From Candidatus Aquidulcis sp. (GTDB taxonomy: Bacteria; Chloroflexota; Anaerolineae; UBA4142), in contig DYJA01000006.1 of the NCBI GenBank assembly GCA_020723345.1, positions 62,001 to 126,000 on the forward strand: 64,000 nucleotides of DNA, written 5' to 3'. Below, piece after piece: positions 40,901 through 49,297 of this stretch. The notes under the pieces were generated by a model that was not told the origin of the DNA, searched no databases, and saw only the letters and a list, made by a program, of their open reading frames with translations. The position numbers and the translations under genes are program-made. Numbering within the stretch: position 1 is the stretch's first letter; every line of letters begins with the position of its first letter.

Positions 40901-40929
40901 TTGTCAAATCACCTAACCCAGGATATAAT
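40901..40929 (+). promoter_or_regulatory. Promoter of the secretion-like operon
   Basis: TTGTCA (40901-40906), a 17-bp spacer and TATAAT (40924-40929). The leader contains three GGCGGTC 7-base words (40948-40970) and an AAGGAG site before ATG 40989. Confidence 0.8.
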
Positions 40930-40988
40930 CACCCACGGCAAAATTCGCGGCGGTCGGCGGTCGGCGGTCGCGTTTGCAAGGAGCAACT

Positions 40989-41306
40989 ATGGGCGGTCTC
41001 CTCCAGAAAATTCTCGAAGGCAACTTTACATCGCCGCTGACGTTCGTCTTTATCATTTTTACGCTGCTCGCGTTTTATTTTCTCGTGCGGCTCGCGTGGA
41101 TTTTCTTTGTGCGCGGCGACGAGTTCGCGGAAAGCGCGGAAGGCAGGCGTCAGACGAAAAACACGGTGCGCCTGCTGGTCATTTGCATTTTCATCGCGCT
41201 CTTCAGCGGCTTTGTGTTTGAGTTCGTCCGCATTGGACGCGACGCGGTCGCCGCGAGCGCGCCCAACGCGGCGCGAGGATTTTTCGATTGGCTGTTGGGC
41301 AAGTAG
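40989..41306 (+). CDS. Small two-helix membrane protein of the secretion-like operon
   Basis: A 105-residue protein with two hydrophobic segments (about 17-37 and 56-78) and short charged ends. Size and topology resemble VirB2/VirB3-type small subunits of type IV secretion systems, but no specific signature is seen. AAGGAG precedes the ATG. Its TAG stop lies at the edge of a perfect palindrome that also encodes part of the next gene's N-terminus. Confidence 0.6.
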   Translation: MGGLLQKILEGNFTSPLTFVFIIFTLLAFYFLVRLAWIFFVRGDEFAESAEGRRQTKNTVRLLVICIFIALFSGFVFEFVRIGRDAVAASAPNAARGFFDWLLGK

Positions 41307-42394
41307 GACAAATTTGCAAATTTGTCCGACAAGCGAAATACAAAATCATCGCGTTTTCGTTCGTCGCGCTCGTCGCGCTCAGCATCGCCACGCCCATCGC
41401 GCACGCGCAAGGACCGACACCGCCGACCAGCGCCGATAAATTTGTCACGATTGCGCAACTCATCCTCGACACCCTGCAAGGCAGAACGACGCTGGGCGCG
41501 GACGCGCTGTTCGAGCAGGCAAAACAAGCCGCGACGAATCTGCTCGGCGCGCCGAACGCCGATTTATTTTTCCTCGATTTCGGCAACCCGAATCTGCCGC
41601 TCAATCAATTCGCGGCGACGGTCGCGCGCAACTTGCTGTTGCTCACGCCGCTGTACGCGCTGGGCTATCTCGCTTTGCTCGTGTACGGCGTGTGGAAAGA
41701 ACGCCCGATTCCGAATCCGATTTTGTACGCTGCGCTCGTCGCCGGCGTCATGTTTTTTCTCGCCGCGTTCGCGTTCATCACGCAAGGAATGAGCGAACTG
41801 GGTCGCGCGATGGCGACGGCGGTCGGCGGCGCGGGCAGCGCGATGTTTGCGCGCGCGACCTTGCTCGACACGATCATTCGTATCCTCGTCGCGCTGCAAC
41901 GCAACGGCGGCATCCTTTCAATTTTCGCGCTGCTGATCGCGATGGTCGAAATGATTATCATTCTGATTCAACTCGCGTATCGCGGCATCACGCTCGCGAT
42001 CTGGCGATTGATCGGCGTGTTGCTGATTCCGCTTTCCGTTTTGCTCGAAGGCGCGACGCCGAAGACGGCGGGCAAGGTGCTGTCGGGATTTTTTGAAGCG
42101 TGGCTCGACATAGTTGGCAAGATCACGCTGCTCCTCATCGTCCTTGCGATTGCGAGCGCGGACGCGTTCGCGCAGCAAATCTGGCTAGTTCTGCCGGCGG
42201 GCTTGCTCGTCGTCATTTTCTCATGGGCGTTCTTCGGCTTGTTCTTCAAGTTGATTCGCGATTCCGTCGCGCGCGCGTGGGCGAATCTCGCGCCCGCAAG
42301 TGAGACCGAATCATCCGCACAAATTTCGGCGGCGGCGGAAGCGGCGCGCGCAAAAGAGATTGACGCCGAACGAAGAAAGATGTTGGAGGAATAG
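41288..42394 (+). CDS. VirB6/TrbL-like polytopic membrane protein
   Basis: A 368-residue protein with an N-terminal signal-like helix ending AHAQG, five or so further membrane helices (about 105-125, 135-160, 190-230, 240-260, 270-305) and a charged cytoplasmic tail. The layout matches VirB6/TrbL channel components of type IV secretion systems. The only start is TTG 41288 (GAGG upstream), inside the previous gene. The first 20 residues are encoded across the palindrome 41306-41327 (VGQICKFVRQ), so the start region looks remodelled by that repeat. Confidence 0.65.
   Translation: MAVGQVGQICKFVRQAKYKIIAFSFVALVALSIATPIAHAQGPTPPTSADKFVTIAQLILDTLQGRTTLGADALFEQAKQAATNLLGAPNADLFFLDFGNPNLPLNQFAATVARNLLLLTPLYALGYLALLVYGVWKERPIPNPILYAALVAGVMFFLAAFAFITQGMSELGRAMATAVGGAGSAMFARATLLDTIIRILVALQRNGGILSIFALLIAMVEMIIILIQLAYRGITLAIWRLIGVLLIPLSVLLEGATPKTAGKVLSGFFEAWLDIVGKITLLLIVLAIASADAFAQQIWLVLPAGLLVVIFSWAFFGLFFKLIRDSVARAWANLAPASETESSAQISAAAEAARAKEIDAERRKMLEE
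41306..41327 (+). repeat. Perfect palindrome overlapping a stop codon and a coding N-terminus
   Basis: GGACAAATTTG and CAAATTTGTCC form a 22-base perfect palindrome. The G of the upstream TAG stop is its first base, and the downstream frame reads through it. Confidence 0.85.
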
Positions 42395-42397
42395 TTC

Positions 42398-43405
42398 GTG
42401 GAAAAAACACGCGCGCCGCGAAATAGAACCGTGACACTCTCTGCAAAAGAAATGGGCTTGTACGAAAAGCATTTGGTAAAACTATCGGACTCCACACAAC
42501 TGCAAGGCATCGAAAACAGAACGATCAACCAGGATTTGTTCGAGATTCTGGACTGGTTGCCAACCGCGTTCGTCGACCTCCTATTTATTGATCCACCATA
42601 CAATCTGACCAAGTCTTTTAACGGAACTGAGTTCAAGGCACGTTCTCTCGACGAATATCACCAATGGTTTGCGGAGTGGTTTCCTAAATTATTGCCGACC
42701 CTCAAGCCAACGGCGTCCGTTTACGTTTGTGGCGATTGGCGGTCTTCGACGGCGATTCATCAAGTAATGGCAAAGCATCTCATCGTCCAGAATCGAATTA
42801 CTTGGGAACGCGAAAAAGGGCGCGGCGCAAAAACAAATTGGAAAAATTGCAGCGAAGATATTTGGTTCGGCACCATTTCAGAAGATTACTTTTTCGACGT
42901 GGACGCGGTAAAACTCAAACGGCGCGTGATTGCTCCGTACACCGATTCGGAGGGCAATCCGAAAGATTGGGAAAAGAATGAAATCGGAAATCACCGCCTA
43001 ACGCATCCATCAAATGTCTGGACGGATCTGACCGTGCCGTTCTGGTCAATGCCAGAAAATACGGATCACCCGACTCAAAAACCCGAGAAACTCTTGGCGA
43101 AAATAATCCTCGCTAGTTCTCGTCCCAACGATCTTGTCTTCGACCCATTCCTGGGTTCGGGAACGACCTCTGTAGTTGCCAAAAAATTTGGGAGAAGATT
43201 TGTCGGCGTTGAGATCGACACAACGTATTGCTGTCTTGCCGAGAAACGCCTGGCAATGGCTGACCGCGACAAAACCATTCAGGGTTACGCTGACGGCATC
43301 TTCTGGGAACGCAATACACTTCAGGATTACAAACGGAGCAGCGACAGGACTGCGACGAACGCAATGCCGCTGTTCGATAGAATCGTTGCGGAGAGGAAAC
43401 GATGA
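42398..43405 (+). CDS. Adenine-specific DNA methyltransferase, beta class
   Basis: A 335-residue SAM-dependent N6-adenine methyltransferase (N6_N4_Mtase fold). The catalytic DPPY is at 65-68 and the SAM motif DPFLGSGTTS comes near 250, the beta-class order. RITWEREKGRGAK and HPTQKPEKLLAK are typical of type II enzymes. The GTG start has TTGGAGGAA upstream and follows the VirB6-like gene by 3 bases. The endonuclease start overlaps its end by 4 bases. Confidence 0.9.
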   Translation: MEKTRAPRNRTVTLSAKEMGLYEKHLVKLSDSTQLQGIENRTINQDLFEILDWLPTAFVDLLFIDPPYNLTKSFNGTEFKARSLDEYHQWFAEWFPKLLPTLKPTASVYVCGDWRSSTAIHQVMAKHLIVQNRITWEREKGRGAKTNWKNCSEDIWFGTISEDYFFDVDAVKLKRRVIAPYTDSEGNPKDWEKNEIGNHRLTHPSNVWTDLTVPFWSMPENTDHPTQKPEKLLAKIILASSRPNDLVFDPFLGSGTTSVVAKKFGRRFVGVEIDTTYCCLAEKRLAMADRDKTIQGYADGIFWERNTLQDYKRSSDRTATNAMPLFDRIVAERKR

Positions 43406-44067
43406 TCCCGAGTCGAATCTTTCGCACACTACAGCACAAGCGAATCGAAAAAGCGATTGTCGCGTTGCTTAATTCCCGACCCGACCCTTTATCGGCGCGT
43501 ACGGTTTTGAGCACCCGCGCGATAGGCGATGCGATCCAGACGATTCTATCGGAGAAATTTCAATCCCTGTTGGGCGGTTCGATTGCCGAGTATTCGTCCA
43601 CATTCGCGCGGCGCGCAATGGCGGATCTGGCGTTCACCGACCGCGACGGTTTCTATTACGTCGTTGACGTGAAGACGCATCACTTGGAAACGCACTTTAA
43701 CATGCCGAACTTTACTTCGGTTGAACGGCTCGTGCGATTCTACGAGGACGACAAGAATTATTTTGTCGTGCTGATGGTCAAGTACGTTATTCAGGGAACT
43801 CGCGTGGCTGTGAAGAAAGCGCATTTTGTTCCAATGGAGTTTCTTTCTTGGGATTGCTTGACGATTGGGGCATTGGGCTGGGGGCAAATTCAAATCGCAA
43901 ACGCCAATATCGTCAACCTCAACGAAGGTTACTCTCGAAGAAAATGGATGCTTGAACTATGCGATGTTATGCTTGAGTTCTACCCAAAAGAGATTGGAAA
44001 AATCCGCGAGCGATTAGATTATTTCAAACGCGTCAAGCGCCATTGGGAAACCAAGAGCGAAAGTTGA
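43402..44067 (+). CDS. PD-(D/E)XK type II restriction endonuclease
   Basis: A 221-residue nuclease paired with the preceding methyltransferase. The active site is Asp75 (MADLAF) followed 14 residues later by Asp89-Val-Lys91 (VVDVKTH), a spacing close to that of EcoRV and HincII. NFTSVERLVRFYEDD and YFVVLMVKY follow. The recognition site cannot be read from sequence. Its stop abuts the ATG of the VirB4-like gene, so the cassette is part of the secretion-like operon. Confidence 0.8.
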   Translation: MIPSRIFRTLQHKRIEKAIVALLNSRPDPLSARTVLSTRAIGDAIQTILSEKFQSLLGGSIAEYSSTFARRAMADLAFTDRDGFYYVVDVKTHHLETHFNMPNFTSVERLVRFYEDDKNYFVVLMVKYVIQGTRVAVKKAHFVPMEFLSWDCLTIGALGWGQIQIANANIVNLNEGYSRRKWMLELCDVMLEFYPKEIGKIRERLDYFKRVKRHWETKSES

Positions 44068-46533
44068 ATGGCTAAATCTCCCCGCCCCATCTTCCTCACC
44101 CGCCTCTGGGCGTTCCTAAATTATCGCACGACGCTGGGCTTGACCTGGCTCGAACTGCTGACCGCGAGCGGCGTCGGCTTGCTCCTCGTCTGGGTCGGCT
44201 TGCACGATTGGATCGGCTTGCCGATTTTCGGACCGCTCGCGCTGTACCTTTTCCTTGCGGGCTTTTACCGCGAACTGCAAATCCCGGTTGCGTGGTTGCG
44301 CGCGCTGTACTACGCGCTCTTCAAACCGCTCGACATCCAACCCGCGCCGCGCCGAAAAGTCTACGCGCTCGTAATTCTTCTCGCCGCGATTCTCATTGTC
44401 ATCGCGCTTGCTGCGCTCGACTGGCGCGTCGGCGCGCTCGGCGCGCTCGCGCTACTCGCCGCGCTCGTCGTCTTTTGGACAATTCACGACCGCGAAACGC
44501 GAGGCGGCAAACTGAATTTGCGCGCAGTCGCGTCGCGCGTGCCGATCCAAGCGATCCTCGACGACGGGCAAATCGTCCATCCCGATGGCACGCATGCGCG
44601 TGTTTCGATCATCACGCTCGCGCGCAGCGCGTACAAACCCGCGCTCCAAGCCGTTGACATCGCGCACACGCTCACGAAATTTCTCGCGTACCTCGCGCAA
44701 CGCGAAGAAGGCGGCTTGCCAATCAAACTTTTCTGGCTGACCGATTACCACTTGGGTCAACTCGATTTGGCGGGACGCGACGATGTGGACGCGCAATATT
44801 TACAGGAACTCCGCGCGCTCGCGGAATCGGGCGCGCGCAAAGCGCGCGTCATCATCACCGGCATCGTGTACCCCACGCAAATCGAGACGCAAGTCCGCGA
44901 ATGGCTCGCGCAACTCGATTTCACGCTTGCGCCGCTCGGCGCGTTCGCGGTCGAGTCGCTCGCGCGGATGTTGTTCGGCGGTGAAAGTTTTCTCGGTCAG
45001 ATTCAGCAAGCGACGCTGAAACACGACGGCGATTTGCCGCGCGTCGCGTATCGCAATTTCATTCCAGAGCAAATGAGTTTCGGCGCGCAACTGCAAACGA
45101 ATCGCAACGTACTGAATGTCACGCGCGTCAACACGCCGTTTCCCGAGGCGCGCGACGCGCTGATGCGCGCGCTGCAAGCGGTGGATGGCATGTTGACGAT
45201 CACCCTGACTCCTCTGCCGCGCGGCACGTCGGCGACAGAATTGCGCGGACGATTGCTTGCCGCACGCGTCCCTGGTTTGGGTCGCGCGAAACAAGCGCGC
45301 ACGCTCCGCGAGACGCTGATGAAACTCGAAGACCGTCGCGCGCTCGAATATCTTTTCGACGCGCAGACGCACCTGATCACCTGGGGGCGCGACGAGCGCG
45401 ACGCGCAGAAAAACCAAAACTTGGCGAACGCGTATCTCACCGCGCTTGAACTCACGCCGCTAACGAATCGCGCGCTCGACTCGCTGGATGTGTGGCTGCC
45501 GGTGCTGTCCGTGCCGCGCCGCGCGAATCGTTTCACGCGCGCGATCGATTGGATCGCATTGCCGCCGCACGCGCTGAGTCAACGTCTACTGACGACCGAA
45601 GCGATCACGACGCTCGCGCAGGAAGAAGGGAGCGACGTTTTTCTCGCGGACGCGCGCGATCGCATTTTGCTTGGGCGGAGCGTGGACATCGGCAAAGAGG
45701 GTTTGCGGTACGTGGACTTTCGTTCGGACACGGGACCCGTTTTGCTCGTCAGCGATCAGGGCGGCGGCAAAACGTCGTCGCTGATCGTCTGGTTCATTTT
45801 GCGGTTGCAACTGCTCAAGTACAAAATCGTCGCCGTGAATTTGAAATACTCGATGCGGATGCAAGCCGCCATCGAAAAAAGCGGCGGCATCGTTTTGCAT
45901 CCACACGACGAACTCGGTTTGTTTGAGCGACAGACGCGCGACGCGCTATTTTCAAATCGCGCGGTGCTGTATCAACCTGTGAAAGGCACGCGCCCGTTTG
46001 CGATTGCGGACGATCCGTGCTTGCGCGCGTTCGCGAAAGTATTTTACGAAGAGTGGCTGCCGCGTCGCGACACGCCCGCCGCGCTCGTCGTCGACGAGAT
46101 TCATCGCCTGATGCCGAAGGACGCGCCGCTCTCCGCGAACGCGGCGGAAACCGCGACGTTGATCGCGGAAGCGTTCAAGGATTGGGCGGAGCGCAAACTC
46201 GTCATCGCGGCAGCGACGCAAACAGTGCGCGATTTGTTGGGGAGCAATCTGGGAATCGCGCTGCAAAAATTTCGCGCCGTCGCGTACTTTCAAGTCGGTC
46301 CTGAAGACCGCGCGATGTTGATCGAAAAGGGGTACACGCCCGCGCTCATCGACGAAATCATCGGTGCGCGGCGACGCCCGCGTGGTTTTTGCGTGCTCGT
46401 GATGCCTGACGGTTTTTACACGACGATCAAGATTTTGGTGACCCAGGATGAGAAAGAAATCATTCAGCGGCTCGACGTGGAGGAAACCTCGGACACCACG
46501 CCGCAGCTAGTTTTCGATCAGAGGGGCGCGTGA
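44068..46533 (+). CDS. VirB4/TraC-like ATPase with N-terminal membrane domain
   Basis: An 821-residue protein. The N-terminus has about four hydrophobic segments (15-70 and 95-145), like a PrgI module fused to VirB4. A linker domain (about 150-500) is unlike known families by eye. The RecA-like ATPase domain has Walker A DQGGGKTS (Lys568) and Walker B ALVVDEIHR (Asp676, Glu677), then ATQTVRDLLGSNLG and a FQVGPEDRA segment. It would energise a membrane machine with the VirB6-like protein. No relaxase or coupling protein is in view. Confidence 0.7.
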   Translation: MAKSPRPIFLTRLWAFLNYRTTLGLTWLELLTASGVGLLLVWVGLHDWIGLPIFGPLALYLFLAGFYRELQIPVAWLRALYYALFKPLDIQPAPRRKVYALVILLAAILIVIALAALDWRVGALGALALLAALVVFWTIHDRETRGGKLNLRAVASRVPIQAILDDGQIVHPDGTHARVSIITLARSAYKPALQAVDIAHTLTKFLAYLAQREEGGLPIKLFWLTDYHLGQLDLAGRDDVDAQYLQELRALAESGARKARVIITGIVYPTQIETQVREWLAQLDFTLAPLGAFAVESLARMLFGGESFLGQIQQATLKHDGDLPRVAYRNFIPEQMSFGAQLQTNRNVLNVTRVNTPFPEARDALMRALQAVDGMLTITLTPLPRGTSATELRGRLLAARVPGLGRAKQARTLRETLMKLEDRRALEYLFDAQTHLITWGRDERDAQKNQNLANAYLTALELTPLTNRALDSLDVWLPVLSVPRRANRFTRAIDWIALPPHALSQRLLTTEAITTLAQEEGSDVFLADARDRILLGRSVDIGKEGLRYVDFRSDTGPVLLVSDQGGGKTSSLIVWFILRLQLLKYKIVAVNLKYSMRMQAAIEKSGGIVLHPHDELGLFERQTRDALFSNRAVLYQPVKGTRPFAIADDPCLRAFAKVFYEEWLPRRDTPAALVVDEIHRLMPKDAPLSANAAETATLIAEAFKDWAERKLVIAAATQTVRDLLGSNLGIALQKFRAVAYFQVGPEDRAMLIEKGYTPALIDEIIGARRRPRGFCVLVMPDGFYTTIKILVTQDEKEIIQRLDVEETSDTTPQLVFDQRGA

Positions 46534-47213
46534 GAACTCGAAAGGATTTTTTCGCGGTTTTCGTACTTTTCGCGGTTTTCGCGCTCACGTGTCCGTTGCT
46601 CGGTTCATTGCTTGGCGGCACAACGCCCGCGACGATTGGCGCGTTCGTCGCGCCTGCGACACTAACGCTCACTCCAACCGCAACACCATCGGCAACTTCA
46701 ACCGTTACGCGCACGCCGACAGTTACGCCGACACTTGCGCCAACCGAAACGCCGACGATCACGCCGCAGCCGCGCGTCTATCTTTTACCATTGCGCCGCG
46801 TCTTTTCCGTTGGGCAAGCGCAGCCGCAAACTGACGCGCCGTTTCTGTTGTACGAAACCGGGAGCGATCAGTTTCAATTGATCGGTCAGCAGGGGACGAA
46901 TGTTCGCTTGCAAACGCTCGATGGACGAATGAATTTTTGGACGGCGCGTGAAAACATTTCGACGATTCCGCCTGTCGCGCCGGAGTACGATTACAGCGCG
47001 CGCGGCAAAACCGCGCGGCTCGCGTCGTCAGGATTTGTGTGCCTGCGCAGCGAGATGCCCGCGCCGGTGTTCAGCATTTGCCAGCCGCAACCTGGCTTTT
47101 CGTCGGCGCGCGTGATCGCCAAGATTACCGCGGGGCATATCGTTTTCTATCTTGTCGAGATCAACGGCAAGAATTATTTCGCGCCGACTGAAGTCGTCGC
47201 GTCGATTTCGTAG
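46530..47213 (+). CDS. Exported protein with Thr/Pro stalk and SH3-like domain
   Basis: A 227-residue protein. An N-terminal hydrophobic segment (about 8-30) is a signal anchor. A Thr/Pro-rich stalk (about 40-80, mostly TPT repeats) carries two small beta modules (LLYETGSDQFQLIGQQGTNV and FSSARVIAKITAGHIVFYLV in part) of bacterial SH3-like appearance. GTG 46530 overlaps the VirB4-like stop (GTGA). It is the last gene of the operon and could be its surface-exposed part. Confidence 0.65.
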   Translation: MRTRKDFFAVFVLFAVFALTCPLLGSLLGGTTPATIGAFVAPATLTLTPTATPSATSTVTRTPTVTPTLAPTETPTITPQPRVYLLPLRRVFSVGQAQPQTDAPFLLYETGSDQFQLIGQQGTNVRLQTLDGRMNFWTARENISTIPPVAPEYDYSARGKTARLASSGFVCLRSEMPAPVFSICQPQPGFSSARVIAKITAGHIVFYLVEINGKNYFAPTEVVASIS

Positions 47214-47244
47214 AAACGGTACGACAGGCAACGGATAAAAGAAG

Positions 47245-47273
47245 AAACGGACGGGAAAGTTCCCCGTCCGTTT
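47245..47273. terminator. Bidirectional terminator
   Basis: An 11-bp stem (47245-47255 with 47263-47273), a 7-nt loop and flanking A and T runs. It lies between the secretion-like operon and the minus-strand ricT gene. Confidence 0.9.
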
Positions 47274-47275
47274 TT

Positions 47276-48127
47276 CTAATCCTCTTCATCCGCCGATGCG
47301 TCGACATTCGTACTCGCGCGCGCGGCGGCGACCAACTTGACGTGGTCGATGGTGAACGTCGCGTTCACGCCGTCTTCGAGTTGCACGGTGACGTTCTCCT
47401 TCAGCACACTGCGCGCGATGACGCGTCCTTGCCCGCGCTCCGTGACGACGGTGTCGCCCACACGCGGCACGCGCCCGCGCGCGGCTTGGTACGTCGGCTG
47501 TTCGTACGCGAGACAGCACAGCGGTCGTCCGCATAAACCGGTCGCCGCGTTCGGTCCGAGCGGCATGTCCTGATCTTTCGCCATCTTGATCGTGGCTTTG
47601 GGAAAATCGCCGAGGAAACGTTCGCAGCAAATCTCGCGCCCGCACGGCGACAGACCGCCGACGAGTTTCGCGCGGTCGCGCGGACCGATCTGCCACAACT
47701 CGACGCGCGCGGGAAAAACGGCGGCGAGGTCTTTGACGAGCGCGCGAAAATCGACGCGTCCTTCCGCGACAAAATAAAACGTCAGATGACTGCCGTCGAA
47801 GTTGTACTCCGCGGTCAGCAACTTCATCGGCAGACTGTGTTTTTCGACCTGGGCGCGGCATTGCGTGAGCGCCTCGCACTCGCGCAATTTGAGTTGCTGC
47901 CACTGCGTCAAGTCAAATGAAGTTGCGCGGCGAAGAATCGGGCGCATCTGCGCGTCGCTCGGAGTCGTTTGCGATGGCGGAACGATCACGCGCGCGGCTT
48001 CGCGGCATTTGTCGGTATCGATGATGACGTATTCGTTGACGCTCAAGTCTTCGAATCCCGTCGCGTCGTAGTAAACGAGTTGCGGCACGCGCCTCACGCG
48101 CAAGCCAGCAACGGTACGGGCAGGCAT
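47276..48127 (-). CDS. ricT: PSP1-domain protein RicT (YaaT)
   Basis: A 283-residue PSP1-superfamily protein. The centre holds FYFVAEGRVDFRALVKDLA, VELWQIGPRDRAKLVGG, CGREICCERFL and GLCGRPLCCLAYE, the Cys-rich signatures of RicT/YaaT. In Bacillus, RicT with RicA and RicF holds 4Fe-4S clusters and modulates RNase Y and phosphorelay. The C-terminal KOW-like end (RVPRVGDTVVTERGQGRVI) is specific to this clade. The holB-ricT order is conserved in Gram-positives and Chloroflexota. AGGAG precedes the start. Confidence 0.92.
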   Translation of the reverse strand: MPARTVAGLRVRRVPQLVYYDATGFEDLSVNEYVIIDTDKCREAARVIVPPSQTTPSDAQMRPILRRATSFDLTQWQQLKLRECEALTQCRAQVEKHSLPMKLLTAEYNFDGSHLTFYFVAEGRVDFRALVKDLAAVFPARVELWQIGPRDRAKLVGGLSPCGREICCERFLGDFPKATIKMAKDQDMPLGPNAATGLCGRPLCCLAYEQPTYQAARGRVPRVGDTVVTERGQGRVIARSVLKENVTVQLEDGVNATFTIDHVKLVAAARASTNVDASADEED

Positions 48128-48149
48128 GACAAACTCCTATGTGAACAGG

Positions 48150-48240
48150 ATAGTGCAATAGTTGGTTAGTGCAATGGTTTGATAGTTCAGCCGCATTTCG
48201 TTGCGACAAGCCAACTATCGCACCATCGCACTATTGAACT
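48150..48240. repeat. Word-repeat hairpin between holB and ricT
   Basis: Left AGTGCAATAGTTGG and AGTGCAATGG, right CCAACTATCGCACCATCGCACTATTG. It fills the 111-base spacer within the operon and touches the holB stop codon. Confidence 0.7.
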
Positions 48241-49297
48241 ATTTTCCTGGTAGATTTAACAGCAACACTTCCAGCGCGAGGCGCGCGTTGACGTTTTGCG
48301 TCAAATAGCGCGCGGTCGCGCGCACGGCTTGCAACGTGCTTTGCGCCTGCTCCAGCGAAAAGCGGTTGGCGTGATCGCGCAGCGCGTCTTCGCGGTCGAC
48401 GTTCGTAATACGCGAGCCATCACCATTTTGGACGAGGACTACATCGCGCCACCACCCCAGCCAAGTTTCGAGCAACTCGGGCAAGTCGTCGTTTTTTTTC
48501 GCGAGACCTTCGGCGCGCACCAAGCGTTCGGCGCGTCCTTCGGCGAGCGCGCCGTTCAACTCGTCGAGATATTGATTGCGCGCGTCAAGCAGCGCGCGAT
48601 TTTCGTGTGCGCGCACCGCCCAGCCCAATCGTCCCGCCGATAGCCGCGCGAGCAAGCGCGCGGATTCGGGATCGGCGCGCCACTTGTCGATCAGCGCGGT
48701 CTCGATGTGCGCGGGCGCGAGCGGTCGCAACGCAAAGACCTGACAACGCGACGCAATCGTCGGCAAGAGGAGACTCGCGTCACGCGCGGTGAGAATCAAG
48801 CGCGTGTGCCGCGGCGGCTCTTCGAGCGTTTTCAAAAACGCGTTCGCCGCTTCCTCGTTCGCTTCTTCAAACCGCCGCAGGATGACGATTTTCCAACGTC
48901 CCTCGAACGGCGCGCGCGAAACATCGTGTTGGAGCGCGCGCACTTGATCGATTTTCAGAATGCGGCGTTCCCAATCATTTGCGCGCGGCGGCGCGGGCGG
49001 CGATTTTTCGTCGAACTTGTAGCCGACGGGCACCCCTTCGACGATCTGCACGTCGGGATGACGGTCGCGCGCGATTTTCTGGCACGTCAGGCATTGACCG
49101 CACGGACGCGCTTCACTCGTACACTGTAACGCCTGCGCGAGTTTGCGCGCCAACATCGTCTTGCCGATGGCATGGGGTCCCGTGAACAAGTACGCGTGCG
49201 CGGCGCGCTCGGTCGCGACACTGCGCGCGAGCGCGCGGATCGCCCAGTCGTGTCCGATCAAGGCCCAGTCTTCTCGAATGTCTACGCGCGCGGTCAC
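48239..49297 (-). CDS. holB: DNA polymerase III delta' subunit
   Basis: A 352-residue AAA+ clamp-loader subunit. Walker A-like GPHAIGKTM, the zinc module CTSEARPCGQCLTC, and sensor-type FEEANEEAANAFLKTLEEPP and TIASRCQVFALRPL are seen. It loads the beta clamp together with tau/gamma and delta. The GTG start at 49297 coincides with the predicted transcription start: the -10 TACAAT ends 7 bases upstream, and there is no ribosome binding site. It heads an operon with ricT. Confidence 0.94.
   Translation of the reverse strand: MTARVDIREDWALIGHDWAIRALARSVATERAAHAYLFTGPHAIGKTMLARKLAQALQCTSEARPCGQCLTCQKIARDRHPDVQIVEGVPVGYKFDEKSPPAPPRANDWERRILKIDQVRALQHDVSRAPFEGRWKIVILRRFEEANEEAANAFLKTLEEPPRHTRLILTARDASLLLPTIASRCQVFALRPLAPAHIETALIDKWRADPESARLLARLSAGRLGWAVRAHENRALLDARNQYLDELNGALAEGRAERLVRAEGLAKKNDDLPELLETWLGWWRDVVLVQNGDGSRITNVDREDALRDHANRFSLEQAQSTLQAVRATARYLTQNVNARLALEVLLLNLPGK

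What the first reader, a model, noticed from the sequence alone, without database searches (positions are those of the whole stretch)
40901..47273. Type IV secretion-like operon of unusual composition
One promoter and one terminator bracket a small two-helix protein, a VirB6/TrbL-like channel protein, a methyltransferase-endonuclease cassette, a VirB4-like ATPase with N-terminal membrane helices and an exported Thr/Pro-stalk SH3-like protein. No relaxase, coupling protein or VirB8/9/10 is present. This may be a minimal monoderm DNA or protein translocator, or a defence-like membrane ATPase system. The tight overlaps (GTGA, ATGA, 0-3 base gaps) argue that all genes work together.
Basis: inference. 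Interest (0 to 1): 0.8.

Follow-up and report, generated by a model that had tools for sequence, protein, structure and literature searches.

The report
Chromosomal mini type IV secretion operon
A lineage of uncultured Chloroflexota bacteria carries, on its chromosome, a stripped-down relative of the machine that bacteria use for mating, inherited for a long time and with a slot in the middle where restriction-modification and other genes come and go; it probably moves DNA, but this has not been shown.

Summary
The operon is real. Its core is not the six genes listed, but three: a two-helix membrane protein (g1), a VirB6/TrbL-family membrane protein (g2) and a membrane-anchored VirB4-family ATPase (g5); an exported protein (g6) is often present. 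The core is syntenic in every related genome where it can be seen. It tracks a chromosomal gene tree, is under purifying selection, and was found only in one order of Anaerolineae (15 of 60 relatives; none elsewhere in the phylum sample, in plasmids or in viral contigs). Profile-profile comparison places g5 with VirB4 (94.6%, against HerA 1.1% and FtsK 0.1%) and g2 with VirB6 (85.9%). No relaxase of the main family and no convincing coupling protein were found. The methyltransferase-endonuclease pair is not part of the machine: it has a different composition, occurs free-standing on a viral contig, and sits in a variable slot that in relatives is empty or holds other restriction-modification, toxin-antitoxin or capsule-type genes. 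Best reading: a domesticated minimal type IV secretion system, resembling archaeal Ced/Ted, most likely for DNA exchange or import. Substrate and direction are inferred, not shown.

The parts
40901..40929 (+). Probable sigma-70 promoter, TTGTCA-17-TATAAT
   Evidence: 11 of 12 consensus positions; TATAAT-like boxes upstream of g1 in several relatives
40989..41306 (+). g1: 105-aa protein with two hydrophobic helices and a charged loop; core gene; pilin-like or VirB3-like role only suggested
   Evidence: Next to g2 wherever visible, mean column identity 81%; NCBIfam NF045849 'pilin-like conjugal transfer protein' E 7e-4, below its cut-off; profile comparison with VirB2 and VirB3 negative
41288..42394 (+). 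g2: polytopic membrane protein of the VirB6/TrbL family with a signal-peptide-like N terminus; core gene (start codon uncertain)
   Evidence: 4 of 9 orthologues hit Pfam TrbL/VirB6, best E 0.0018; hhalign to VirB6 profile 85.9%, E 5e-6, controls at most 0.6%
42398..43405 (+). Cargo: N6/N4 DNA methyltransferase in the variable slot
   Evidence: PF01555 E 1e-41; GC3 0.54 against 0.73 in g1, g2 and g5; 59% identical homologue in a free-standing pair on a viral contig
43402..44067 (+). Cargo: partner of the methyltransferase, probable restriction endonuclease (reads AD...VDVKTH, a possible PD-(D/E)XK site)
   Evidence: No family hit; 61% identical homologue directly behind the methyltransferase on viral contig L172; motif read
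44068..46533 (+). g5: VirB4-family ATPase with N-terminal membrane helices, Walker A (VSDQGGGKTS) and Walker B (ALVVDEIH); core gene
   Evidence: Foldseek: the only three matches at E below 1e-3 are TrwK/VirB4 of R388, along nearly the whole length (model of low confidence); hhalign to 15 VirB4: 94.6%, E 7e-8, 512 columns; motifs nearly invariant in 11 orthologues
46530..47213 (+). g6: exported bitopic protein with Thr/Pro linker and two conserved cysteines; accessory to the core
   Evidence: Found in 10 genomes and missing in 4 with downstream sequence; alignment A4
47245..47273 (.). Probable terminator, shared with the convergent gene
   Evidence: 13-pair inverted repeat with T-run

Best explanation
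The operon encodes a domesticated, chromosomal, minimal type IV secretion system core. g2 (VirB6 family) is the membrane channel. g5 (VirB4 family), anchored by its own N-terminal helices, is the ATPase that drives it, probably as a hexameric ring. g1 is a small membrane subunit (pilin or anchor), and g6 an exported accessory that may contact the cell surface or a partner cell. I think its substrate is most likely DNA, exchanged between related cells or imported, as in the archaeal Ced and Ted systems. The restriction-modification genes are exchangeable cargo in a slot between g2 and g5; they probably use the operon's promoter but are not part of the machine. Shown here: homology of g2 and g5, conserved synteny, purifying selection, restriction to one order, foreign cargo. 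Inferred: assembly, substrate, direction, the roles of g1 and g6.
For: VirB4 identity of g5; VirB6 identity of g2. Core synteny in all genomes where it is visible. g5 and ComEC identities correlate at r = 0.84, with the two families kept apart in both trees and g5 better conserved than ComEC (71% against 52%). dN/dS 0.06 to 0.34 in the core and g6. No PF03432 relaxase in 20 genomes. PF02534 coupling-protein matches are nearly all P-loop stretches of about 50-70 residues, in G000 inside a HerA-like gene. No homologue in plasmids or viral contigs. comEC beside the operon in two genomes, with a fragment on the same contig in a third. Domesticated, relaxase-less VirB2/VirB6/VirB4 systems that exchange DNA are known in archaea (PMC9905601, PMC11868833).
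Against: Nothing here shows that DNA is the substrate. The mostly relaxase-less chromosomal system of Patescibacteria is thought to serve functions other than conjugation (PMC12102498). g1 does not match VirB2 pilins by profile. comEC adjacency is not general. CedA and CedB sequences were not on hand, so orthology to Ced/Ted is untested. Both AlphaFold models were poor (pLDDT 45 and 50).
Confidence: 0.5

Rival explanations
1. The same minimal VirB6-VirB4 machine, but exporting proteins or building a surface appendage for cell contact, as proposed for the Patescibacteria system, rather than moving DNA.
For: Relaxase and coupling protein not found; g6 is exported with a Thr/Pro linker and a conserved cysteine pair; a chromosomal, mostly relaxase-less system in a phylum called sister to Chloroflexota is needed for epibiotic growth (PMC12102498).
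Against: No effector gene is linked to the core; in the window's family the slot is filled mainly by DNA-modification genes.
Confidence: 0.3
2. All six genes form one functional unit, a defence or DNA-filtering system in which restriction-modification is integral.
For: Tight gene junctions; restriction-modification genes of several kinds in the slot in 5 of 6 members of one family where the slot can be at least partly seen.
Against: The pair occurs alone on a viral contig; the slot is empty in two genomes and holds toxin-antitoxin or capsule-type genes in others; foreign composition.
Confidence: 0.08
3. The remains of an integrative conjugative element that have lost relaxase, coupling protein and integrase.
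For: Relaxase and coupling protein were not found; recognisable VirB4 genes are rare in the class.
Against: Purifying selection, conservation across two families, agreement with a chromosomal gene tree and no related mobile copies.
Confidence: 0.05
4. A HerA- or FtsK-type membrane ATPase system, unrelated to type IV secretion.
For: On the ATPase core alone the structural aligner scores HerA and VirB4 alike, Z 9.1 against 8.9.
Against: Full-length Foldseek and profile comparison favour VirB4 strongly, and g2 is VirB6-like.
Confidence: 0.05

Closest known systems
Ced and Ted DNA-exchange systems of archaea (PMC9905601, PMC11868833)
   Same: Chromosomal, relaxase-less set of a VirB6-like channel, a VirB4-like ATPase (about half of the archaeal ATPases have membrane helices) and small two-helix proteins
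   Different: A bacterium; pilin identity of g1 unproven; exported g6 and the cargo slot not described for Ced/Ted in the passages read; orthology untested
[quoted passage not shown]
   Same: Chromosomal, mostly relaxase-less, VirB4 and VirB6, in a monoderm phylum called sister to Chloroflexota
   Different: Patescibacteria also have PrgI/VirB3, TrsD, VirB2-like and often VirD4 genes; here none was recognised near the core
Mycoplasma ICE conjugation module (reviewed in PMC12857230)
   Same: Small membrane proteins, a VirB6-like protein and a VirB4; linked to transfer of chromosomal DNA; weak NCBIfam hits of g1 to its small proteins
   Different: Mobile element with VirD4; here chromosomal, with no clear VirD4
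Conjugative VirB4/VirB6 of R388 and similar plasmids
   Same: Same ATPase and channel families
   Different: No VirB5, VirB8-VirB11, VirD4 or relaxase recognised in the operon

Membership tests
Type IV secretion system | VirB4-family ATPase | tested here: met
   hhalign 94.6%, E 7e-8 over NTD and CTD, against HerA 1.1%, FtsK 0.1%, reversed control 0.4%; Foldseek top three TrwK/VirB4
Type IV secretion system | VirB6/TrbL-family channel protein | tested here: met
   hhalign 85.9%, E 5e-6, controls at most 0.6%; Pfam TrbL in 4 of 9 orthologues, best E 0.0018
Type IV secretion system | VirB2 pilin or VirB3/PrgI subunit | tested here: inconclusive
   NF045849 pilin-like E 7e-4 below cut-off; VirB2/VirB3/PrgI profile comparison no better than controls
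Type IV secretion system | VirB8/VirB9/VirB10 or analogues | tested here: inconclusive
   No family hit for g6 or any operon gene; VirB8 analogues in monoderms diverge strongly; not searched genome-wide
Conjugative element (ICE or plasmid) | Relaxase | tested here: not met
   PF03432 in 0 of 20 relatives, with a positive control genome; other relaxase families not searched
Conjugative element (ICE or plasmid) | Coupling protein VirD4/TcpA | tested here: inconclusive
   PF02534 matches only P-loop stretches in most genomes; one longer match in G418; TcpA not searched
Ced/Ted DNA-exchange system | Chromosomal, vertically kept VirB6-VirB4 pair without relaxase | tested here: met
Ced/Ted DNA-exchange system | Common descent with CedA/CedB or TedA/TedB | not tested
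   No Ced/Ted sequences on hand
Ced/Ted DNA-exchange system | DNA import or exchange, DNA-damage induction | not testable with these tools
   Needs a cultured relative or metatranscriptomes

The most novel reading that the evidence does not exclude
This is a domesticated bacterial counterpart of Ced: a chromosomal DNA-exchange machine whose operon keeps a built-in slot where restriction-modification modules are swapped, so that the cell checks incoming DNA with genes expressed together with the importer.
Probability: 0.13. Interest if true: 0.88.

Novelty: new variant of a known kind. Interest (0 to 1): 0.58.

Why it matters
Domesticated type IV secretion systems that serve the cell rather than a mobile element are known for few lineages (archaeal Ced/Ted, Patescibacteria). 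A three-gene core kept by an order of Chloroflexota would be among the smallest, would show what is essential (VirB6 plus VirB4), and makes it testable whether such lineages exchange chromosomal DNA. The cargo slot is an unusual case of restriction-modification and toxin-antitoxin genes repeatedly entering one position inside a conserved membrane-machine operon.

Tried and rejected
Direct HMM and PDB sequence searches gave no significant hit for g5 or g2 of the window. AlphaFold models were poor (pLDDT 45 and 50); the VIA-align hits of the g2 model were mostly generic helical matches, TrwI/VirB6 only at Z 4.8 with rmsd 11.8. A first hhalign with five F-type VirB4 gave only 21%; adding diverse VirB4 raised it to 94.6%. 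A VirB3/PrgI fusion at the N terminus of g5 was considered: PrgI hits are not significant. g1 as VirB2 pilin could not be confirmed. Single archaeal pNOB8 ATPases do not match the shallow g5 profile, which is not evidence against. The methyltransferase-endonuclease pair as part of the machine was rejected. Literature searches in the held library found no description of this operon in Chloroflexota.

Full report
What is there. The window lies on contig C119 of a 6.3-Mb assembly. Named relatives are uncultured Anaerolineae, Chloroflexota. Only the methyltransferase has a strong family hit (PF01555). Neither the ATPase nor g2 of the window has a significant hit by direct Pfam, NCBIfam, PADLOC, PHROG or PDB sequence search.

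Distribution. g5 homologues were found in 15 of 60 nearest relatives (the window's genome included), all in the window's family or order. Apart from the window's own genome there were none in a 400-genome sample of the phylum, and a profile search of 396 genomes of the class found only the same order. Profiles of g1 and g2 gave the same picture apart from weak short hits. Plasmids and viral contigs had no homologue. One same-genus genome (G400) and G408 lack the ATPase although they are 93-94% complete.

Core and slot. Where contigs allow it, g1 and g2 are always adjacent and g5 follows on the same strand; g6 is found in ten genomes and is missing in four with downstream sequence. Between g2 and g5 lies a slot of 88 to about 4000 bp. 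In the window's family it holds restriction-modification genes in five of six genomes where it is at least partly visible: the window pair, a different methyltransferase plus a 375-aa protein (G407), and an N6-methyltransferase/specificity protein shared by G402, G403 and G405 with different companions; it is empty in G411. In the sister family it is empty (G413) or holds DUF433/DUF5615 toxin-antitoxin genes, capsule-type NKWYS genes and small unknowns. The DUF433 assignment is read from the translation; DUF5615 and NKWYS are Pfam hits. The window pair has GC 0.49 and GC3 0.54-0.59, against 0.56-0.61 and 0.73-0.74 for g1, g2 and g5. A free-standing pair with 59% and 61% identity and the same tight overlapping order lies on viral contig L172, without core genes nearby.

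What the core is. For g5, Foldseek on a low-confidence model gave three matches below 1e-3, all TrwK/VirB4 of plasmid R388, aligned over almost the full length. On the ATPase core alone HerA and VirB4 tie. Profile-profile comparison against 15 diverse VirB4 gave 94.6%, E 7e-8, 512 columns through N- and C-terminal domains, with Walker A aligned; 21 HerA gave 1.1%, 19 FtsK 0.1%, reversed controls 0.4% or less. VirB4 subsets of similar or lower depth than the HerA set still gave 62% and 21%, so profile depth alone does not explain the difference. For g2, a ten-member VirB6/TrbL profile gave 85.9%, E 5e-6, 167 columns, with reversed, ABC-transporter and ComEC controls at 0.6% or below. Pfam TrbL/VirB6 hits four of nine orthologues, best E 0.0018. 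g1 gives a weak pilin-like NCBIfam hit (7e-4, below cut-off) that profile comparison with VirB2 does not support.

Inheritance and selection. The g5 tree separates the two families, pairs G402 with G407 and G413 with G417 as the ComEC tree does, and pairwise identities correlate at 0.84; mean identity is 71% for g5 and 52% for ComEC. dN/dS is 0.06-0.34 in the core genes and g6. So the core is chromosomal, mainly vertical and functional. Flanks differ between lineages; comEC stands beside the operon in G402 and G407, with a fragment on the same contig in G411, but not in the window's genome.

How it probably works. By the established roles of the families, g2 forms a membrane channel and g5 an ATPase ring bound to it and to the membrane by its own helices, which may stand in for VirB3. 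With no relaxase of the main family and no convincing coupling protein, plasmid-type conjugation is unlikely. The nearest functional parallels are Ced/Ted, which exchange chromosomal DNA with the same three kinds of part (PMC9905601, PMC11868833), and the Patescibacteria system (PMC12102498), whose substrate is unknown. I favour DNA because of the Ced/Ted parallel, and more weakly because of the DNA-modification cargo and occasional comEC neighbourhood. This step is inference.

Limits. All relatives are metagenome assemblies; several slots are cut by contig ends. The g5 profile is shallow (Neff 1.6). Ced/Ted and Patescibacteria proteins were not on hand for a tree. Relaxase was searched with one family only.

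Noticed in passing
L019 2100-4385; L028 4164-6452 (coordinates on its reverse complement); G411:C174:12729: comEC, the DNA-uptake channel gene, lies divergently next to g1 in G402 and G407, and a fragment lies on the same contig in G411.
   Followed up: partly
L046 1444-3291 (minus), G240:C199: A 616-aa VirB4-like protein with a Walker B but no visible Walker A in another Anaerolineae family.
   Followed up: no
L020 9420-9983; L023 9423-9983; L152 end: DUF433/DUF5615 toxin-antitoxin genes occupy the same slot in the sister family.
   Followed up: partly
L020 6642-8510; L021 8051-9921: Tandem NKWYS (capsule-type) genes in the same slot in two genomes.
   Followed up: no
L027 5402-7135: A large serine-recombinase-like gene (by its translation) upstream of the operon in G411, the family's genome with an empty slot.
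   Followed up: no
L172 2009-3657: Free-standing pair of the window's methyltransferase and endonuclease on a 106-kb viral contig; the methyltransferase also has a 58% identical relative in a Prevotella record.
   Followed up: yes
window 47276-49297 (minus): PSP1/YaaT-like and DNA polymerase III delta'-like genes, side by side as known from Bacillus holB-yaaT, lie convergently downstream (identified from the translations only).
   Followed up: no
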